DNA from: Taklimakanibacter deserti
Lineage (GTDB): Bacteria; Pseudomonadota; Alphaproteobacteria; Rhizobiales; Aestuariivirgaceae
Direction: 5' to 3'
Length of the DNA stretch: 64,000 bases
NCBI GenBank assembly: GCA_003574785.1
Contig: QORU01000008.1
Span: 186,001 to 250,000 of the forward strand
Below the pieces are notes generated by a model that was not told the DNA's origin, made no database searches, and saw only the letters and a list, made by a program, of their open reading frames with translations. Shown here one piece after another: positions 202-9,876 of the stretch. A program made the position numbers and the translations under genes. How positions within the stretch are numbered: position 1 is the stretch's first letter; the number at the start of each line of letters is the position of its first letter.

Positions 202-1251
202 TTAAAGCCGACTCCCGCTCTCCCCGTCAAACAGGAACACCCGGTCCTTGCCGAAGCGGAAGGCGATCGGCGTGTCGACCTCTTGCCGGAAGACGCGCGG
301 ACCCTTGGCGACGACGAGCTGCTCGCCGGCCCAGGCCGTGACCAGGGTCACATCGCCGGTCGGCTCCAGCGAATAGAGCTTGGATTTGAGATGGCCGTCC
401 TGGCCGGGGACGATCTCCATGTCTTCGGGCCTGACACCCAGGACGACATTGGCCCTCGTCCCTTGCCCGCAGCCTTTGACCCGCGTGTCGGGACCGACGA
501 AATCGCCATTCTCGAGCGCGCCCGGGATGAGGTTCATGGGCGGCGAGCCGATGAAGCCCGCGACGAAGAGATGGTTGGGGTTGTTATAGACCTCGTCCGG
601 CGTGCCGAGCTGCTGGATCTTGCCCTTGTTCATGACCGCGATGCGGTCGGCGAGCGTCATCGCCTCGATCTGGTCATGTGTCACATAGATGGTCGTGGTC
701 TCGAGCTCCCGCTGGATGTGCTTGAGCTGGGCCCGCATGGTGAGGCGCAATTTGGCGTCGAGATTGGAGAGCGGCTCGTCCATGAGGAAGACTTGCGGCT
801 GGCGCACGATGGCGCGCGCGAGTGCGGCGCGCTGGCGCTGTCCGCCGGACAGGGCCCTGGGCTTGCGGTCGAGATAATCGCCGAGCTCCACCATTTGCGC
901 CGCCTGGCGCACCAGCCGGTCATGGTCGGCCGAAGGGATGCCGCGCATCTTCAGGGGAAAGCGGATGTTGTCGTAGATCGACATGTTCGGATAGAGCGCA
1001 TAGCTCTGGAACACCATGGCGACGTCGCGGTCGCGGGCGTCGACCTCGTTGACGACCTCGCCGTCGATGGTGATCTCGCCTGCCGTCGGGTCCTCGAGGC
1101 CGGCGATCATCCGCATGGTCGTGGTCTTGCCGCAGCCCGAGGGGCCGAGGAAGACCATGAATTCCTTATCCCTGATATCGAGATCGATGTCGTCGACGCC
1201 GACGAAGCTCCCCCAGGACTTCGATATGCCGCGCAGTTTGATTTCAGCCAT
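202..1251 (-). CDS. ABC transporter ATP-binding protein, UgpC/MalK type
   Basis: This 349-residue protein is a carbohydrate-uptake (CUT1) type ATPase, the cytoplasmic energising subunit of a sugar or glycerol-phosphate importer. Walker A GPSGCGKTT lies at residues 37-45, the LSGGQRQR signature near 133, Walker B VFLMDEP near 152, and the TTIYVTHDQIEAM switch-His segment after it. A C-terminal regulatory OB/TOBE half follows (GVRPEDMEI). Length is normal for the MalK/UgpC family. No permease or solute-binding protein gene is present in the window, so this is an orphan ATPase here. It is divergent from the DRL/E1/E2/kinase operon, which suggests import of that operon's substrate, but this rests on position alone. 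Confidence 0.9.
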   Translation of the reverse strand: MAEIKLRGISKSWGSFVGVDDIDLDIRDKEFMVFLGPSGCGKTTTMRMIAGLEDPTAGEITIDGEVVNEVDARDRDVAMVFQSYALYPNMSIYDNIRFPLKMRGIPSADHDRLVRQAAQMVELGDYLDRKPRALSGGQRQRAALARAIVRQPQVFLMDEPLSNLDAKLRLTMRAQLKHIQRELETTTIYVTHDQIEAMTLADRIAVMNKGKIQQLGTPDEVYNNPNHLFVAGFIGSPPMNLIPGALENGDFVGPDTRVKGCGQGTRANVVLGVRPEDMEIVPGQDGHLKSKLYSLEPTGDVTLVTAWAGEQLVVAKGPRVFRQEVDTPIAFRFGKDRVFLFDGESGSRL

Positions 1252-1457
1252 GGCGCCCTTGCATCTGTCCCCGCGTCTCCCATCCGCATTTTGTTGTTCT
1301 CAAGTCTCGACCGCAAACACTATAGCGTCGAGCTGAGAATGCAACACTTTCAAATATGAGAGACAATTGTACCATTTCGTTGAGATAACAAAATTGGACT
1401 CCGAGGGCGGAAAACCCTTCAAATCCTGAGACAGGGCGGCCAAAATCCTATTACATA

Positions 1458-1501
1458 TTGACAATCGAGAGCATAAAAGTATCTATTTTGTTAGAGCAAA
1501 A
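1458..1501 (+). promoter_or_regulatory. Candidate promoter and operator of the DRL operon
   Basis: TTGACA at 1458-1463 is a perfect -35 box. A -10-like TATCTATTTT starts at 1480, after a 16-base spacer. The inverted repeat TTTTG-TTAGAG-CAAAA (1486-1501) overlaps the expected start of transcription and could bind a repressor. The surrounding 1330-1510 stretch is much richer in A+T than its neighbours and also holds ACAATTGT near 1368. No regulator gene is adjacent. Confidence 0.5.
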
Positions 1502-1523
1502 CGATAGTCCCATGGGAGGCAGA

Positions 1524-2870
1524 ATGGCCGTCGCAGCCCGTCAAAAGTCCGTCAGCTTTTCGGGCTCGCTGGCATCGGATCTGGCACGCCATTTCGCGGC
1601 CGAAGGCCGTCCGATCCGGATCGGCCTCATCGGCTCGGGCGAGATGGGGACCGATATCGTCACCCAATGCGACCAGATGGCGGGCATCACCGTTGCTGCC
1701 ATTGCCGAGATCAATATCGCCGCCGCGGAGCGCGCCCTCGCCATCGCCGGCAGGCCCGCCGAAAGCTATGCGGTCACGGGCGGCAAGGCCCAGTTCGACG
1801 AAGCCCTGCGCCAGGGCCGCACCGCCATCACCGAAGACGCGCTCACTCTGTGCACCAATGACGAGATCGACGTCGTCATCGACGCGACCGGCCGTCCCGC
1901 GGTCGGGGCCGAGATCGGCCTCGTCGCCATGGAGCATGGCAAGCATCTGGTGATGATGAATGTCGAGGCCGACGTCACCATCGGCGCCTATTTGCAGCGC
2001 GAGGCGAAGCGCCTTGGCGTCGTCTATACGCTGGGCGCCGGCGATGAGCCGAGCTCCTGCATGGAGCTCATCAATTTCGTGCAGAGCCTCGGCTATCCGA
2101 TCATCGCCGCCGGCAAGGGCAAGAACAACCCGCTCAATATCGAAGCGACTCCCGACGCCTATCTGGATGAGGCCAAACGGCGCAACATGAATCCGCGCAT
2201 GCTGGTCGAGTTCGTCGACGGCTCGAAGACCATGGTCGAGATGGCGGCGATCGCCAATGCGACAGGCCTCGTGCCGGATTGTCCCGGCATGCACGGGCCG
2301 CAGGCGACCTTGCCCGAGCTCGAGAAGGTGCTGGTGCCCAAGCAAGACGGCGGCGTGCTGTCGCGCAAGGGCGTGGTCGATTATTCGATCGGCAAGGGCG
2401 TGGCGCCTGGCGTCTTCGTCATTGCCGAGATGGCGCATCCGCGCGTGCGTGAGCGCATGCATGACCTGAAGCTGGGCGCGGGGCCTTATTACACTTTCTA
2501 CCGCCCCTATCATCTGACCAGCCTCGAAGTGCCGCTCTCTTGCGCGAGGGCCGTTCTCTATGGCACCGCCGACATGCAGCCGCTCGACCGGCCCTCGGCC
2601 GAGGTCTGCGCGGTGGCCAAGAAGGACCTGAAGCCTGGCGACAGGCTCGACGCCATCGGCGAATATGCCTACCGCGCCTGGATCATGACTTATGACGGCG
2701 CCAAGGCGGCGGGGGCCGTCCCTTGCGGCCTCCTCGAGCAAGGCACGGTGGCGAGGCCCATCGCCAAGGGCGATTTGCTCACCCATGACAATGTGAAGGT
2801 CGATCAGGGATCGCGCATCGTGGCGCTGCGCCGCCGCCAGGACGACATGCTCGTGCGAGGGGCGGCATGA
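1524..2870 (+). CDS. drl: DXP-reductoisomerase-like (DRL) / COG4091 NAD(P)-dependent oxidoreductase with SAF domain
   Basis: This 448-residue cytosolic protein has a Rossmann motif IGLIGSGEMG at residues 33-42, a homoserine-dehydrogenase-like middle (NVEADVTIG, LGAGDEPSSCMELI, GKGKNNPLN, DGSKTMVEMAAIANATGLVP) and a C-terminal SAF-like region (AVAKKDLKPGDRLDAIG). From memory it resembles the Brucella abortus DRL enzyme, which converts DXP to MEP with NADPH, along its whole length. Family members next to catabolic genes have no proven role. The start at 1524 is chosen because GGGAGG (1514-1519) precedes it at good spacing and the more upstream in-frame start lies inside the -35 box. Its stop overlaps the E1 alpha start (ATGA), so the two are translationally coupled. 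Confidence 0.8.
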   Translation: MAVAARQKSVSFSGSLASDLARHFAAEGRPIRIGLIGSGEMGTDIVTQCDQMAGITVAAIAEINIAAAERALAIAGRPAESYAVTGGKAQFDEALRQGRTAITEDALTLCTNDEIDVVIDATGRPAVGAEIGLVAMEHGKHLVMMNVEADVTIGAYLQREAKRLGVVYTLGAGDEPSSCMELINFVQSLGYPIIAAGKGKNNPLNIEATPDAYLDEAKRRNMNPRMLVEFVDGSKTMVEMAAIANATGLVPDCPGMHGPQATLPELEKVLVPKQDGGVLSRKGVVDYSIGKGVAPGVFVIAEMAHPRVRERMHDLKLGAGPYYTFYRPYHLTSLEVPLSCARAVLYGTADMQPLDRPSAEVCAVAKKDLKPGDRLDAIGEYAYRAWIMTYDGAKAAGAVPCGLLEQGTVARPIAKGDLLTHDNVKVDQGSRIVALRRRQDDMLVRGAA

Positions 2871-3889
2871 ACAAGGCCGTCAGAGAGACCGCGCCCGCGT
2901 CCAACCTGCGCGACTTCTATCGCCATTTCGATGCCGCTTCTCTGCGCGAGGCGCTCAGGCGCATGTATCTGATCCGCCGTTTCGAGGAAGGTGCGGAGGA
3001 CGCTTACACGCGCGGCCTCATCCACGGCACGATGCATCTCTCGATCGGCCAGGAGGCGAGCGCGGTCGGCGCCTGCATGGATCTGCGCAAGTCGGACTAC
3101 ATCACCTCGACCCATCGCGGCCATGGCCATTGCATCGCCAAGGGCGCCGATCCGAAGCTGATGTTCGCCGAGTTCTTCGGCAAGGAAGAAGGCTATTGCC
3201 GCGGCCGCGGCGGCTCCATGCATATTGCCGATGTCGAAAGCGGCAATCTCGGCGCCAATGGCATTGTCGGCGGCGGGCTGCCGATCGCCGTCGGCGCGGC
3301 GCTGGCCATCAGGAAGCAGAAGCGCGACGATGTGGCCCTGTGCTTCTTCGGCGACGGCGCCTCGAACGAAGGCGCCTTCCATGAGGCGCTCAACATGGCG
3401 GCGATCTGGAAATTGCCGGTGCTGTTCATTTGCGAGAACAACAAATACGGCATGTCGGTGTCGACCGAGCGCTCCATGGCGGTCGAGCATGTCGCCGACC
3501 GCGCTTCCGCCTATAAGATGCCGGGCGAGATCGTCGACGGCAACTGCATCGAGGATGTTTCGGAAGCCGTCATGCGCGCGACCGCACGCGCCCGGGCCGG
3601 CGAGGGGCCGAGCCTTATCGAAACCAAGACCTATCGCATCCGTGGCCATTCCAAGAGCGACCGCAACCGCTATCGCACCAAGGAAGAGATCGAGGAGTGG
3701 ATGGCGCGCGACCCGATCGGCCATTTCGAGACCAATCTCGAAGCTTTCGGCATACTGGGCAAGGATGAGGTCACGGCCATTCGCACGGGCGCCGAAGCCG
3801 AGATCGCCCGGGCCATCGAATTCGCCAAGGGCGGCACCGATCCTTCGCCTTCCGAGCTCACCCGCGACGTCTATACGGTCGGGGGCTGA
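2867..3889 (+). CDS. Thiamine-diphosphate-dependent dehydrogenase E1 alpha (acetoin/pyruvate dehydrogenase type)
   Basis: This 340-residue alpha subunit belongs to an alpha2beta2 E1 of a 2-oxoacid or acyloin dehydrogenase complex. The ThDP/Mg signature is visible: GDGASNEG at 162-169 with ENN about 28 residues later. THRGHGH and GRGGSMHI (about 82-120) are typical of the family, as is the phosphorylation-loop-like [11 protein letters not shown]1 alpha with E1 beta decarboxylates a 2-oxoacid or cleaves an acyloin and passes the acyl group to lipoyl-E2. Sequence alone does not separate pyruvate from acetoin-type substrates. Coupling to the DRL gene and to a sugar kinase argues against housekeeping pyruvate dehydrogenase. 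Confidence 0.9.
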
Positions 3890-3891
3890 TC

Positions 3892-4884
3892 ATGGCTTTG
3901 CGCGAATTGAGCTATGCGGAAGCCGTCCGCGAGGCGCTCGCCCAGGCGATGGAGGCCGATGAACGCGTCTTCCTCATGGGCGAGGATATCGGCGTCTATG
4001 GCGGCGCCTTTCAGGTGACGGGCGATCTCGTCCATCGTTTTGGCGAGGACCGGGTGATGGACACGCCGATCGCCGAGCTGGGGGCTGCCGGTGTCGCCGT
4101 CGGCGCAGCCCTTGCCGGCTGCCGGCCGGTCTTCGAGTTCCAGTTTTCCGATTTCGCCACCTTGGCGATGGAGCAGATCGTCAACCAGGCGGCAAAAATC
4201 CGCTTCATGCTGGGCGGCAAGGTGTCGGTGCCTCTGGTCATGCGCTTCCCGGCGGGGTCCGGCACGGGTGCCGCCGCCCAGCACAGCCAGTCGCTCGATG
4301 CCTGGTTCGCGCATGTGCCGGGCCTAAAGGTGGTGCAGCCTTCGACGCCGCATGACGCCAAGGGCCTGTTGCTCTCGGCGATCGATGATCCCGATCCGGT
4401 GATGGTGTTCGAGCACAAGCTTCTCTACAAGATGAAGGGCGATGTGCCGGAGGATGCCTATCGCGTGCCGATCGGCAAGGCGGCGGTCAGGCGTGAAGGC
4501 CGCCATGTCACGCTGGTCGCGACCGCGATCATGGTGCATCGCGCGCTGGAGGCGGCTGAAACCCTGGCGCAAGACGGCATCGAGGCGGAAGTCATCGACC
4601 TGCGCACCTTGCGCCCGCTCGACACCGAGACGATCATCGCCAGCGTCAAGAAGACGAGCCGGCTCGCTTGCATCTATGAAGGCGTCAAGACGCTGGGCAT
4701 CGGCGCCGAGATCAGCGCCATGATCGCCGAGAGCGAGGCCTTCGACTATCTCGACGCGCCGATCCTGCGTCTGGGCGGCGCCGAGGCGCCGATCCCCTAT
4801 AATCCGGTGCTCGAGAAGGCGGCCGTGCCTCAGACCGACGGCATTGTCAGCGCCGTGCGCCACCTCGTGACCGGCCGGGTCTGA
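3892..4884 (+). CDS. Thiamine-diphosphate-dependent dehydrogenase E1 beta (acetoin/pyruvate dehydrogenase type)
   Basis: This 330-residue transketolase-like beta subunit is the partner of the preceding E1 alpha; the gap between them is 2 bases. [17 protein letters not shown] near the N-terminus, [18 protein letters not shown], and the C-terminal transketolase domain with [16 protein letters not shown] are all in the expected order. Length is normal. Unlike mitochondrial-type PDH beta subunits of many alphaproteobacteria, it carries no fused lipoyl domain; that domain is supplied by the separate E2 gene downstream. A 278-base gap filled with hairpin repeats separates it from E2. Confidence 0.9.
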
Positions 4885-4934
4885 TCGGATGCGAGACATC
4901 ACGCGTGAGTTTCGCCCGTCACCCCTTTCGCGAA

Positions 4935-5132
4935 CTCTCCCTCCGCCACGCGAAGCGTGGGGAGGGTGTCGCGCGTCAGCGCGACGGGTGGGGTCTCTCC
5001 GTAAGGGAGATTTCTCAAGCAAGACATTTGCAAGCTATGCAATCCAATCGTTGAGCACCTCCCGGCGGAGCGACCCCCACCCGGCGCTCTGCGCCACCCT
5101 CCCCCACGCCTTGCGGCGCGTGGGAGGGAGAG
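4935..5132. repeat. Inverted pair of two-hairpin GC-rich repeats between E1 beta and E2
   Basis: Copy A (4935-4994) holds CCTCCGCCACGCGAAGCGTG and GTCGCGCGTCAGCGCGAC, ending in GGGTGGGG. Copy B (5073-5132) is the same design in reverse orientation: CCCCCACCCGGCGCTCTGCG, then CACCCTCCCCCACGCC and GGCGCGTGGGAGGGAG. About 78 bases of less structured DNA lie between them. The pair looks like a REP doublet or MITE-like element. The 278-base space between E1 beta and E2 contains nothing else apart from a short stretch before the E2 start. Confidence 0.7.
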
Positions 5133-5162
5133 ATGCGGCTTTGACGGCATGTGTGGTGGGCC

Positions 5163-6404
5163 ATGCCGCTTGAGGTCATCCTGCCGCGTGTCGATATGGA
5201 CATGGCCACGGGCAAGATCAGCAAGTGGTATGTCAAGGAAGGCGAGAAGGTCGCCAAGGGCGCGCCGATCTTCGAGATCGAGACTGACAAGGCGGCGATG
5301 GAAGTGGAATCGCCCGGCGACGGCGTGATCCATAACATCACTGCGACGGAGGGGATCGACATCCCGGTCGGAACGCCGGTCGCTTTCATCTATGGCGAAG
5401 GCGAAGCCGTTGCGGCGCCTGCTATCGTTAAACCTGCAGCCGCGCCACCCGTCCGACAGGCGGAGCCGGTTCCGACAGCGCAGCCGCCGCTCGCGCCGCA
5501 AGTCGAAGAGAGAACCGGTCTGCCGCGCGCCACGCCTCTGGCGCGTCGCCTCGCGCGCGAGCGCGGACTCCAGCTGCCCGCGATCCCCGGCAGCGGCCCG
5601 AGAGGCCGCATCCAGGCCGAAGATGTGCGGAACTTCCATTCCACGCCAGCGCCACCCGAGCGACCGCCGGCGCCCGACGTTGCAGGCCTCTATCAGCCCG
5701 GAAGCTACGACATCGAGCCTCTGTCGGGCATGCGCCGCATCATTGCCGACAGGCTCGTCCAGTCGAAGCAGACGGTGCCGCATTTCTACCTCACCCTCAC
5801 TTGCGATCTGACCCGGCTTCTCGAAGACCGAAAGCTGCTCAATGAGCGCGCACCAGTCGGGCCCGACAAGCAGCCTTTGTGGAAGCTCTCGATCAATGAT
5901 TTCGTCATCAAGGCCCTGGCGCTGGCGCTCCAGCGCGTGCCCAATGCCAATGTCACCTGGACGGAGCAGGGCATTCTCAAGCATCGCGCATCGGATGTCG
6001 GCGTTGCCGTCGCGGTGGAAGGCGGTCTCTACACGCCGGTGATCCGCTCGGCCGAGCAGAAATCGCTCTCGCTTCTATCGATCGAGATGAAGGACCTGGC
6101 GGCCAAGGCGCGCGCCCGCCGTCTCCAGCCTGCCGACTATCAGGGCGGCACGACCGCCGTCTCCAATCTCGGCATGTTTGGCATCGAAGAGTTCGCGGCC
6201 ATCATCAACCCGCCGCAGGCGACGATCCTCGCCGCCGGCGCCGGCATCGAGCGGCCGGCCGCCGTCAAGGGCGAGATCGTGCTGAGGACAGAAATGACCT
6301 GCACGCTGTCTTGCGATCACCGCGCCGTCGATGGCGCGCTGGGAGCCGAACTCCTGGCGGCATTCAGGTTGTTCATCGAGGAGCCGGCACTTATGCTGGC
6401 CTAA
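5163..6404 (+). CDS. Dihydrolipoamide acyltransferase E2 (2-oxoacid/acetoin dehydrogenase complex)
   Basis: This 413-residue E2 has one N-terminal lipoyl domain ([15 protein letters not shown], lipoyl lysine about residue 43), a Pro/Ala linker, a peripheral-subunit-binding domain ([15 protein letters not shown] with GPRGRI, about 119-148) and a C-terminal acyltransferase domain with catalytic DHRAVDG near 385. The product is an acyl-CoA. The ATG at 5163 gives the canonical [14 protein letters not shown] opening; a GTG 12 bases upstream is possible but less likely. No E3 (lipoamide dehydrogenase) gene follows, so the complex must borrow one. The gene is in line with E1 alpha/beta and followed after 18 bases by a PfkB kinase. 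Confidence 0.9.
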
Positions 6405-6422
6405 ACACCTCAGGGAAGCAGC

Positions 6423-7385
6423 ATGAGATACGACTATTCATCGATCGGCTTCTACACGTTCGACTGCCTGGGCTGGCCATTCACCTCGGTGCCGGAAGGC
6501 GGCGGCACGCATTTCATCGACGAGCTGACGCTCGCGGTCTCGGGCGCCGCCGGCACGGCCGCGATCGCTGCCGCCAAGATGGGGCTCAAGGTCCTGGCGG
6601 TCGGCGGCGTCGGCCCCGATCTCATGGGCGACTGGGTGCTCCAGCGCCTGAACAGCTTTTCCGTCGATACCTCCGCCATGCAGCGCATCGAAGGGTCGCG
6701 GACCTCGTCCTCGATCGTGACGACGCGCGCCGACGGCACGCGCCCGGCGCTTCATATGAAGGGCGCGACCGGCGATTTCTTCGTCGACGATACGTTGCTC
6801 AAGCAGGTGATCGATGCGCGCGTCGTGCATATTGGCGGCATAGGCCTCACCGAGAGGATGGACAAGGGCCGCAATGCCGAATTGATGCGCGCCGCCAAGC
6901 AGCAGGGCGCCACGACGACGCTCGATGTCTTCGCGAGTTCCAAGGCCGATCTGCCGGCCGTGGCGCAAGTTCTGCCGCATGTCGATTACTTCATGCCCTC
7001 GATCGAGGAAGCGAGTGCGCTCACCGGCTTCACCGGCCTTGCCGACAACGCGAAATACTTCATCGATCACGGTGTCGGCGCTTGCGTGTTCACCCGCGGC
7101 GCCGACGGCGCCTATTACCACGACGCCAAGGGCATGCGTTTCGAGGTGCCGGCCTTCGACATCGAGGTCAAATGCACCTGCGGCTGCGGCGATGCCTTCA
7201 ATGCCGGCTTCGCCGTCGCTTACTGCCAAGGCTTCGATCCGGAAACCACGGTGCGCTTCGCGCAGGCCACCTCGGCGCTCAACGCCACCGGCCTCGGCTC
7301 GCAAGCGGGCGTCAAATCCTTCGAGCACACGCTCGATTTCATGAAGCACACCCCGACCCGCGCCAAGGCGGGCGTGGCGGCTTAG
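6423..7385 (+). CDS. PfkB-family (ribokinase-like) sugar kinase
   Basis: This 320-residue cytosolic kinase has the PfkB glycine-rich N-terminal signature (SGAAGTAAIAAAKMGLKV, then GGVGPDLMGDWV) and a C-terminal signature CGCGDAFNAGF, where the usual GAGD has become GCGD while the catalytic Asp is kept. The family phosphorylates sugars, nucleosides and related polyols with ATP; substrate cannot be read from sequence. GGGAAGCAGC just before the start is a usable ribosome site. Last gene of the DRL-E1-E2 operon, so a sugar or polyol entering that pathway is the likely substrate. Convergent with copA across a hairpin repeat. Confidence 0.85.
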   Translation: MRYDYSSIGFYTFDCLGWPFTSVPEGGGTHFIDELTLAVSGAAGTAAIAAAKMGLKVLAVGGVGPDLMGDWVLQRLNSFSVDTSAMQRIEGSRTSSSIVTTRADGTRPALHMKGATGDFFVDDTLLKQVIDARVVHIGGIGLTERMDKGRNAELMRAAKQQGATTTLDVFASSKADLPAVAQVLPHVDYFMPSIEEASALTGFTGLADNAKYFIDHGVGACVFTRGADGAYYHDAKGMRFEVPAFDIEVKCTCGCGDAFNAGFAVAYCQGFDPETTVRFAQATSALNATGLGSQAGVKSFEHTLDFMKHTPTRAKAGVAA

Positions 7386-7464: not shown

Positions 7465-9876
7465 TTACAACCTCATCACCCGCAGCCGCAGCGCATTGCC
7501 GATCACACTCACCGACGACAGCGCCATGGCGGCCGCCGCGATCACCGGTGACAGCAATAGGCCCAAGGCCGGATAGAGCACGCCCGCCGCGACCGGGACG
7601 CCCGCCGCATTGTAGATGAAAGCGAAGAGCAGGTTCTGGCGGATATTGCGCATCGTCGCCTGGCTGAGCTGGCGCGCATGGGCGATGCCCATGAGATCGC
7701 CCTTGAGCAAGGTGACGCCGGCGCTTTCGATGGCGACGTCGGTGCCCTTGCCCATGGCGATGCCGATATCGGCGGCGGCAAGTGCGGGCGCATCATTGAC
7801 GCCGTCGCCCGCCATGGCGACGACCAAGCCTTCGCTTTGCAGGCGCTTGACGACCTTTGCCTTTTGGTCGGGCAGGATGTCGGCCTCGATCTCGCTGATG
7901 CCGAGCTTCTGCGCCACCGCTTGCGCCGTGGTGCGATTGTCGCCGGTCAGCATGACGATGCGCAAGCCGGCCTCCCGCAAGGTCTTGAGCGCCTCCGGTG
8001 TCGTCGCCTTGACCGGATCGGCAATGGCGATGAGGCCTGCGGCCTTGCGATCGATGCCCGCGAAGATGACCGTGGCGCCTTCTTGGCGCAGAGCGTCGGC
8101 TTGATTCGCGAGAGATGCCGCATCGATCCCTTCCGAGGTGAGGAAGTTGGCATTGCCGAGCACGACCTTCTTGCCGTCGACCGTGCCCTTGGCGCCCTTG
8201 CCGGTGGGCGAGTCGAAATCCGAAACCTTCGGCAGCGTGAGCTTCTTCTCTTCCGCCGCGGCGACGATGGCAGCTCCCAGCGGATGTTCGGAAGCGCGCT
8301 CGACACCGGCCGCGAGCCGCAAAAGCTCGCTCTCATTCATGCCCGCCGCCGCCACGATGCGCGTGACTTTGGGCTTGCCTTCGGTGAGCGTTCCGGTCTT
8401 GTCGAAGATGAGCACTTGCGCCTTCTCCAGCCGTTCCAGCGCCTCGGCATTCTTGATCAATATGCCGTTCTCGGCACCCTTGCCGACGCCGACCATGATC
8501 GACATGGGTGTCGCGAGGCCGAGCGCGCAGGGGCAGGCGATGATGAGGACCGAAACGGCGGCGAGCAGGGCAAAGGAGAAACGCGGCTCCGGGCCCATCA
8601 GCATCCAGGCCGCGAAAGCGATCACTGCAATGGCGATGACGAGCGGCACGAACCATCCGGAGACCTGGTCGGCGAGCCGTTGGATGGGTGCGCGCGAGCG
8701 CTGCGCCTCCGCCACCATCTGCACGATGCGCGCCAGCATCGTCTCGCGCCCGACCTTGACGGCCCTTATGGTGAGAGCGCCGCTCTGGTTGAGCGTGCCG
8801 CCCGTCACCTGGGCGCCGACCGCCTTTGTGACCGGCATGGACTCGCCGGTGATCATCGATTCATCGACCGATGAGCGTCCGTCGATGACCTCGCCATCGA
8901 CCGGCACCTTCTCACCCGGCCGCACGCGCAGGGTGTCGCCCGCCTGGACGAGATCGAGCGCCACTTCCTCTTCGCTGCCATCGGAACTCAGGCGGCGCGC
9001 CGTCTTGGGTGCCAAGCCGAGTAGCGCCTTGATCGCGCCCGAGGTTTGGTCGCGCGCCTTGAGCTCGAGCACTTGTCCCAAGAGGACGAGCACGGTGATG
9101 ACGGCGGCGGCCTCGAAATAGACCGGCATGCTGCCGTCATGGTTGCGCAAAGATTCGGGGAACACGGCAGGGAACGCCGCGGCGATCACGCTATAGGTCC
9201 AGGCGACGCCGGTGCCCATGGCGATGAGAGTGAACATATTGAGCTGCCGCGTGACGAGCGAGCGCCAGCCGCGCTCGAAGAAGGGCAGGCCCGCCCACAG
9301 GACGACCGGTGTCGCGAAGGCGAGCTGCAGCCAGTTGGACAGGTTCTGCGGGACGGCATGCATGAGCGCCGGGAAGAAATGCGTGCCCATTTCAAGGATG
9401 ACGACCGGAACGGTGAGGACGAGGCCGATCCAGAAGCGCCGCTTCATGTCGGCGAGCTCGGGATTAGGCCCGCTGTCGGCGGTGGCGATCTCGGGCTCGA
9501 GCGCCATGCCGCAGATCGGGCAGGAGCCGGGGCCGACCTGGCGGATCTCCGGATGCATCGGGCAGGTATAGATGGCGGCGGGATCGGCCGGGGCCTCGGC
9601 CTTTTGTGGCGCCAGATAACGTTCGGGGTCAGCTTCGAATTTCGTCTTGCAGCCGGCCGAGCAGAAATAGAAGGCTTCGCCGTGATGGGTCGTCTTGTGC
9701 TTGGCCGTCTCCGGATTGACGTTCATCCCGCAGACCGGGTCCTTCACCGTATGGGCCGCCGCGCTTGCCGGCGCTTTGTGGCCCGAACAGCATGAATGCG
9801 CTGACCCATGCTGCGCGTGCTCATGATGAGCGTGGCCGTGATGGGTGTGGGCGCCGTGGTCTTCTTTCTTGGTCAC
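7465..9876 (-). CDS. copA: Copper-translocating P-type ATPase (P1B), with YHS and heavy-metal-binding N-terminus
   Basis: This 803-residue inner-membrane Cu(I) exporter has a His-rich leader (residues 4-30, [15 protein letters not shown]), a YHS domain ([20 protein letters not shown], about 45-90), and an HMBD-type zinc-ribbon-like region (YTCPMHPEI...[10 protein letters not shown], about 103-130). The membrane CPC motif ([13 protein letters not shown], about 447), phosphorylation site DKTGT (about 490) and hinge GDGVNDAPA (about 690) are intact. No CxxC ferredoxin-like HMA domain is present. Divergent from csoR, sharing two copper-repressor operators, which fits copper-induced expression. 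Confidence 0.95.

What the first reader, a model, noticed from the sequence alone, without database searches (positions are those of the whole stretch)
1252..7385. Possible catabolic reversal of the first MEP-pathway steps: DRL + acetoin-dehydrogenase-type E1/E2 + PfkB kinase in one operon
Seen: a COG4091/DRL-like oxidoreductase overlaps E1 alpha by 4 bases, E1 beta and E2 follow, then a PfkB kinase; an ABC sugar-importer ATPase is divergent. Known: Brucella DRL interconverts DXP and MEP; acetoin dehydrogenases use ThDP to cleave CH3-CO-CHOH-CH3 into a two-carbon unit captured by lipoyl-E2 and an aldehyde. Inference: DXP is CH3-CO-CHOH-CHOH-CH2OP, an acyloin with the same head, so the complex could cleave it to acetyl-CoA plus glyceraldehyde 3-phosphate. 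The kinase would make MEP or DXP from methylerythritol or deoxyxylulose, and DRL would oxidise MEP to DXP. This would be an undescribed route for methyltetrols, which come from plants and isoprene oxidation.
Basis: partly seen in the sequence, partly recalled or inferred. Interest (0 to 1): 0.85.

Follow-up and report, generated by a model that had tools for sequence, protein, structure and literature searches.

The report
Likely bacterial pathway for eating methylerythritol
A gene cluster shared by many soil and plant bacteria looks like an undescribed route for using a branched sugar alcohol, most likely methylerythritol, as food by running the first steps of isoprenoid building backwards; no enzyme test has been done.

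Summary
The genes are as described. A DXR-II/DRL reductoisomerase overlaps E1alpha by 4 bases; E1beta, E2 and a PfkB kinase follow; an ABC-importer ATPase is divergent. Among the 80 DRL genes most like the window's, chosen without regard to context, 60 have this E1 subfamily nearby and 59 have E1alpha adjacent. Conversely, 22 of 27 such E1alpha genes, found in 26 of 297 genomes, have DRL within 1.5 kb. Uptake and phosphorylation come as interchangeable modules: ABC importer plus PfkB, glucitol-type PTS, or MFS plus FGGY kinase (one Bacillota plasmid). The glucitol-type PTS points to an imported polyol. Of 44 genomes, 13 have canonical dxr, and their single DRL is the E1-linked one. E1-linked DRLs carry an acidic NAD-type residue (66 of 66 rows); a second copy in Brucella haematophila and three Mesorhizobium carries basic NADPH-type motifs. 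The E1 forms its own subfamily. Best reading: methylerythritol -> MEP -> DXP -> acetyl-CoA + glyceraldehyde 3-phosphate. The catabolic module is well supported; substrate and E1 step are inferred. Against: the window's closest relatives lack canonical dxr, so their DRL may serve both directions. My searches of an open-access library found no description.

The parts
202..1251 (-). ABC importer ATPase (MalK/UgpC type); in L001 the rest of the importer and a SorC/DeoR-type regulator lie further upstream, outside the window (L001:2360-8235)
1252..1523 (.). divergent intergenic region, presumed promoters (inferred from arrangement; not scanned)
1524..2870 (+). DRL / DXR type II oxidoreductase, 448 aa; substrate-site residues of Brucella DRL kept; acidic NAD-type residue at the end of the second Rossmann strand
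2867..3889 (+). E1 alpha of a ThDP-dependent dehydrogenase complex, its own subfamily
3892..4884 (+). E1 beta, with subfamily-specific Q84 and S86
4885..5162 (.). 278-base intergenic stretch rich in inverted repeats between E1 beta and E2; L002 has only 3 bases there
5163..6404 (+). E2: lipoyl, E3-binding and acyltransferase domains
6423..7385 (+). PfkB-family kinase; proposed polyol kinase

Best explanation
The operon encodes a catabolic route for a branched polyol, most likely 2-C-methyl-D-erythritol. The ABC importer takes it up and PfkB phosphorylates it to MEP; elsewhere a glucitol-type PTS does both. [quoted passage not shown] The E1-E2 complex, with an E3, cleaves DXP as an acyloin: the acetyl unit passes through ThDP and lipoate to acetyl-CoA, and glyceraldehyde 3-phosphate is released. 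That last oxidation would pull the reversible DRL step towards DXP. Shown here: gene content, conserved linkage, module swapping, DRL clade and residues, a distinct E1 subfamily. Inferred: the substrate, the direction of DRL, and the E1 reaction.
For: Linkage: E1 nearby in 60 of 80 DRL loci, E1alpha adjacent in 59; reciprocally 22 of 27 E1alpha genes, in 26 of 297 genomes, have DRL within 1.5 kb. Modules: of 32 E1-linked loci with at least 9 kb on both sides, 19 carry a glucitol-type PTS, 9 carry PfkB (50% identity or more), none both, 4 neither. The PTS set usually includes its own HPr-EI. Priestia plasmid: E1-E2-E3, regulator, MFS, regulator, DRL, FGGY kinase. Canonical dxr: all 13 dxr-positive genomes hold one DRL, and it is the E1-linked one; one of them, the genome of L005, carries the window's ABC+PfkB form with DRL 81% identical. 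Substrate-site and clade residues K191, K193, T229, H250, R320 are kept in 100 of 100 fetched DRL rows and the window. M. loti and O. anthropi were reported to have additional functional DXR-II paralogues (PMC3847144, parts 1-4 of 8 and passages). G031, G033 and G036 have ispD, no dxr, no HMG-CoA reductase and only an E1-linked DRL, which suggests that it can make MEP. Cofactor: E/D at position 59 (of the 445-residue reading) in 66 of 66 E1-linked rows, then I/L in 65; SARR in a Brucella haematophila second copy and STRR in three Mesorhizobium second copies. Chemistry: purified PDH is reported to make 1-deoxyxylulose from pyruvate and glyceraldehyde, and aceE mutants to make DXP (PMC3424233, abstract and discussion).
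Against: No growth or enzyme data. The window's nearest relatives (G001, G002, G004, G038-G042) have no canonical dxr, and their second DRL sits beside a class II aldolase gene (8 of 8), so neither copy is plainly biosynthetic. G031, G033 and G036 would have to make MEP with an NAD-type DRL. 13 of 16 P5CR-linked DRL rows (14 distinct) keep an acidic D at position 59 and differ only in the next residues, so the cofactor argument is not all-or-none. Of 46 loci with long flanks, 14 have no E1, one of them (L013) with ABC and PfkB genes beside DRL. 4 of 27 E1alpha genes have no DRL in the wider stretch fetched. The Listeria innocua and Enterococcus raffinosus DRL-PTS clusters have no E1 nearby. 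The glucitol PTS family does not name the polyol. Arginine R266 of the E1alpha loop is not kept in Priestia.
Confidence: 0.6

Rival explanations
1. Same logic, other substrate: the module degrades another branched or deoxy polyol, DRL being an oxidoisomerase or plain dehydrogenase on that polyol phosphate and E1 cleaving the resulting acyloin.
For: The glucitol PTS and PfkB families do not fix the substrate. Related DRL clusters have other cleavage genes: class II aldolase, FSA-type aldolase plus transketolase.
Against: DRL substrate-site residues are unchanged from Brucella DRL, and 11 members of the DXR-II clade are reported to work as DXR in complementation (PMC3847144). Three genomes seem to depend on an E1-linked DRL for MEP. 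I saw no further enzyme conserved throughout the cluster, as expected if the DRL product is the E1 substrate.
Confidence: 0.25
2. DRL here is simply the organism's DXR for isoprenoid synthesis, placed by chance beside a spare pyruvate or acetoin dehydrogenase.
For: No canonical dxr in 8 of 8 genomes of the window's closest relatives.
Against: Linkage recurs in 59 of 80 loci and in a second phylum. 13 genomes have dxr and still keep the linked DRL. The E1 is a separate subfamily, and 13 of 13 genomes searched hold further E1alpha paralogues. Transport and kinase modules are not expected for biosynthesis.
Confidence: 0.08
3. Salvage: the kinase or PTS makes MEP from environmental methylerythritol mainly to feed isoprenoid synthesis, and E1-E2 disposes of surplus DXP.
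For: MEP is an isoprenoid intermediate; ispD was found in 11 of 11 genomes searched, most of which hold the operon.
Against: An importer, a sugar-sensing regulator and a full dehydrogenase complex (with E3 and lipA in S. meliloti Rm41) suit carbon use better; for salvage alone, DRL and E1-E2 are not needed (inference).
Confidence: 0.07

Closest known systems
DXR type II (DRL), e.g. Brucella DRL, PDB 3UPL/3UPY
   Same: Same kind by sequence (577.6 bits over residues 13-440) and the same substrate-site residues
   Different: Acidic NAD-type residue where Brucella DRL has SARR; encoded with a ThDP dehydrogenase complex and a polyol uptake module
Acetoin dehydrogenase complex (AcoABC)
   Same: ThDP E1 plus lipoyl E2 proposed to cleave an acyloin; THRGHGH motif shared with non-PDH paralogues thought to be acetoin-type (label recalled)
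   Different: At most 47% E1alpha identity to the 17 paralogue rows; PDH-like GHSxSD loop; Q84/S86 in E1beta where those paralogues have M and I or V
Pyruvate dehydrogenase E1/E2
   Same: Domain layout; best solved-structure hits are human PDH E1
   Different: Below the NCBIfam PDH cut-offs for E1alpha and E2 (376.9 of 393.85; 403.4 of 445), though E1beta passes a PDH-beta subfamily model (411.2, cut-off 321); the position of human E1beta Phe85 is Ser
Glucitol/sorbitol PTS operon (srl/gut)
   Same: EIIA, EIIB, EIIC and GutM in the PTS form of the cluster
   Different: DRL and E1-E2 stand where a sorbitol 6-phosphate dehydrogenase would be (role of SrlD recalled)
D-apionate oxidoisomerase ApnO pathway (recalled, not looked up)
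   Same: Catabolic oxidation with skeletal rearrangement of a branched sugar compound
   Different: Different substrate and cleavage step; not compared by sequence here

Membership tests
DXR type II (DRL) | Match to DRL catalytic domain and close kinship to Brucella DRL | tested here: met
DXR type II (DRL) | Substrate-site residues K191, K193, T229 and clade residues H250, R320 | tested here: met
   positions from PMC3847144; V351, also named there, is Ser in the window
DXR type II (DRL) | Converts DXP to MEP | not testable with these tools
   indirect only: G031, G033, G036
DXR type II (DRL) | NADPH-type cofactor site as in Brucella DRL | tested here: not met
   AEIN instead of SARR; kinship stands, direction of use may differ
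Pyruvate dehydrogenase E1 | NCBIfam equivalog cut-off for PDH E1 alpha | tested here: not met
   376.9 bits, cut-off 393.85
Acetoin dehydrogenase E1 | Groups with acetoin-type E1 proteins | tested here: not met
   65 fetched rows have at least 64% identity to the window's E1alpha, 17 paralogue rows at most 47%; no proven acetoin dehydrogenase was in the set, the acetoin label of paralogues is recalled from the motif
Acetoin dehydrogenase E1 | Activity on acetoin | not testable with these tools
   no assay
PfkB kinase | Pfam PF00294 above cut-off | tested here: met
   139 bits, cut-off 25.8; no NCBIfam cut-off reached among the 22 models listed
Catabolic polyol cluster | Uptake, phosphorylation, sugar-sensing regulator and degradative enzymes together | tested here: met
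   (in relatives; the window itself is cut off upstream)

The most novel reading that the evidence does not exclude
This is a widespread, undescribed pathway that degrades 2-C-methylerythritol, including isoprene-derived methyltetrols, through a new enzyme, a DXP-cleaving E1-E2 dehydrogenase. The alternative isoprenoid enzyme DXR-II began as its NAD-linked catabolic step and was recruited to isoprenoid synthesis after a switch to NADPH, which would explain its patchy spread and its presence beside canonical DXR.
Probability: 0.45. Interest if true: 0.87.

Novelty: new variant of a known kind. Interest (0 to 1): 0.78.

Why it matters
It would give a carbon-cycle sink for methylerythritol and methyltetrols, which have been measured in air masses from Amazonia (PMC11868990, title and abstract start in a search listing). 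It would add an enzyme reaction, oxidative cleavage of DXP to acetyl-CoA, and bear on a question left open in print: why DXR-II is scattered over bacteria, often beside ordinary DXR and even where the rest of the MEP pathway is missing (PMC3847144, parts read). It could also give engineers a way to feed methylerythritol into isoprenoid production (inference).

Tried and rejected
Housekeeping pyruvate dehydrogenase: rejected, because further E1alpha paralogues are present in 13 of 13 genomes searched and the operon E1 is a separate group. E1 loop arginines R266/R268 as a phosphate site: kept only as a hint, since Priestia has AKK there. Literature: ten searches. I saw only the listed rows: 5 of 5, 20 of 82, 20 of 45, 4 of 4, 15 of 1435, 15 of 721, 1 of 1, 12 of 116, 15 of 62 and 20 of 342. 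None listed is about catabolism of methylerythritol or this cluster; the library is open-access papers only, and Sangari 2010 was not held. The conserved neighbour of unknown function (c6) had no convincing Pfam match in 23 members (best E 0.041) and no PDB fold match with E at or below 0.001. Homologue searches gave only generic names.

Rows to know about: the E1beta 'operon' group used identity of 50% or more and so took in one PDH-like row (L150), which explains the lone M84/F86. The Priestia E1alpha is cut off by the stretch end and was not in the E1alpha set (53% identity over residues 128-336). The 101 DRL rows (the window and 100 fetched) include copies of the same gene (96 distinct).
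Full report
WHAT IS THERE. The operon runs 1524-7385 on the plus strand: DRL, E1alpha (4-base overlap), E1beta (2 bases between), E2 (after 278 bases of inverted repeats) and a PfkB kinase; an ABC ATPase is divergent at 202-1251. The DRL protein matches the crystallised Brucella DRL over residues 13-440 with 577.6 bits. No whole genome is held for the window. The closest fetched relatives are Taklimakanibacter lacteus (L001, DRL 89% identical) and other Hyphomicrobiales. There the upstream part shows a SorC/DeoR-type regulator, a solute-binding protein and two permeases.

LINKAGE. Of these 80 loci, 60 have the same E1 subfamily (at least 60% identity) in the fetched stretch and 59 have E1alpha directly beside DRL. 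46 loci have at least 9 kb on both sides, and 32 of them have E1. Of the 14 without, 10 lie beside a pyrroline-5-carboxylate-reductase-like gene (P5CR), one (L013) has ABC and PfkB genes and 3 have neither. In reverse, an E1alpha search of 297 genomes of the order gave 27 genes in 26 genomes; 22 have DRL within 1.5 kb. For the other five, a wider stretch showed DRL in one more (L194, with a glucitol-type PTS between) and none in four. Six of those 26 genomes had been seen before. On a FastTree tree of the DRL rows the E1-linked label needs 7 changes and the PTS-or-ABC label 2.

MODULES. In the 32 full-length E1-linked loci, 19 carry a glucitol/sorbitol-type PTS, 9 carry the PfkB kinase, none both, and 4 neither (L032, L035, L049, L052). 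The PTS set has EIIA, EIIB, EIIC, GutM and usually a fused HPr-EI. Named plasmid records agree: S. meliloti Rm41 carries ABC + sugar kinase + regulator + DRL + E1-E2-E3 + lipA; Pseudoroseomonas carries PTS + DRL + E1-E2; Priestia aryabhattai (Bacillota) carries E1-E2-E3 + MFS + DRL + FGGY kinase. Listeria innocua and Enterococcus raffinosus have DRL + PTS with no E1 nearby; in the Listeria record a tagatose-bisphosphate aldolase gene lies about 2.5 kb past the PTS genes. Ligilactobacillus salivarius has DRL + PTS + FSA-type aldolase + transketolase. That a PTS of a family which imports and phosphorylates polyols replaces importer plus kinase is the main reason to read the substrate as a polyol and its phosphate as the DRL substrate (inference).

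BIOSYNTHETIC OR CATABOLIC. Canonical dxr was found over cut-off in 13 of 37 genomes and 0 of 9. In 44 of these 46 genomes DRL was counted: all 13 dxr-positive genomes have one DRL, and each is E1-linked. One of the 13, that of L005 (Rhodospirillaceae), has the window's ABC+PfkB form. Of the 31 without dxr, 23 have two or more DRL matches and 8 have one: G005, G019, G043 and G044 (MAGs), G028 (P5CR-linked copy only), and G031, G033, G036 (E1-linked copy only). The last three have ispD and no HMG-CoA reductase match, so their E1-linked DRL probably can make MEP, unless an assembly gap hides a dxr. HMG-CoA reductase was found in 2 of 11 genomes, G001 and G009. In seven genomes I saw an E1-linked copy and a second copy beside P5CR (G009, G012, G016, G017, G021, G022, G027); in G020 and G034 the second copy is beside neither. 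PMC3847144 (parts 1-4 of 8 and passages read) states that Mesorhizobium loti and Ochrobactrum anthropi have additional functional DXR-II paralogues; which paralogue is E1-linked in those strains was not checked.

COFACTOR SITE. At the end of the second Rossmann strand, 66 of 66 E1-linked rows (window included) have E (53) or D (13), followed by I/L in 65. The second copy of Brucella haematophila has SARR, like the crystallised Brucella DRL, and three Mesorhizobium second copies have STRR. The other 13 of 16 P5CR-linked rows keep D but are followed by T or R. By the usual rule (recalled), an acidic residue here favours NAD(H) and basic ones NADP(H). This fits oxidation by the operon's DRL and reduction by stand-alone copies, but not without exceptions. 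PMC13001223 (passages) lists the DXR reaction as reversible.

THE E1. Among 83 E1alpha rows, 66 including the window have at least 64% identity to the window's; the 17 others have at most 47%. The operon type has THRGHGH, as in some paralogues thought to be acetoin-type (label recalled), but a PDH-like GHSKSD loop. Subfamily-specific positions include H53, T55 (F in 13 of 17 paralogues) and R266-N267-R268 in E1alpha, and Q84 and S86 in E1beta, where PDH-like rows have M and F and the others mostly M and I or V. In alignment to human PDH T55 falls two residues before the histidine recalled as active-site His63, and S86 at Phe85 of the chain. The Priestia E1beta keeps Q and S; its E1alpha loop reads SDAKK. 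A wider, more polar pocket is inferred. Precedent: purified PDH makes 1-deoxyxylulose, and aceE mutants make DXP (PMC3424233, abstract and discussion).

MECHANISM. Import and phosphorylation give MEP; DRL with NAD+ gives DXP; E1-ThDP attacks the DXP ketone and releases glyceraldehyde 3-phosphate; the acetyl unit goes to lipoyl-E2 and CoA; E3 re-oxidises lipoate. The products enter central metabolism with no further enzyme, which fits that I saw no other enzyme conserved throughout the cluster. An E3 gene matched in 6 of 60 E1-linked loci (many of them cut short), and none was found in the window with the same probe, so an E3 from elsewhere must serve.

NOVELTY. Database names are generic ('predicted homoserine dehydrogenase-like', 'pyruvate dehydrogenase E1', 'acetoin:DCPIP oxidoreductase'). 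Ten literature searches (only listed rows seen) gave no description of methylerythritol catabolism or of this cluster. The parts are known families; the pathway and the E1 reaction would be new.

Noticed in passing
L111-L118 (second DRL of the window's relatives): All 8 fetched second DRL copies have a class II aldolase gene just upstream of DRL, 7 of 8 an FGGY kinase nearby and 4 of 8 an aldehyde dehydrogenase. This looks like a second undescribed DRL-based sugar pathway.
   Followed up: partly
L001:1732-2352 (-); 28 of 60 E1-linked loci: A protein of about 205-215 aa ('c6') recurs in both the ABC and PTS forms of the cluster; no convincing Pfam match, confident mostly helical model (mean pLDDT 85.4), no PDB fold match.
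   Followed up: yes
L161:13877-16539: In Ligilactobacillus salivarius DRL and the glucitol-type PTS are followed by an FSA-type aldolase and a transketolase, possibly replacing E1-E2 as the cleavage step.
   Followed up: no
window 4885-5162: 278 bases rich in inverted repeats inside the operon; an 87-base similar stretch lies elsewhere in L001 (1621-1707), while L002 has only 3 bases at this place.
   Followed up: partly
L001:7399-8235 and L048:2191-2883: Two further conserved proteins without Pfam match accompany mostly the ABC form.
   Followed up: no
L195:720-9846: E1-E2 with glucitol-type PTS and c6 but no DRL within the fetched stretch.
   Followed up: no
window 7465-9876 (-): Long ORF resembling a heavy-metal P-type ATPase directly downstream; judged by eye from the translation, unrelated to the finding.
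   Followed up: no
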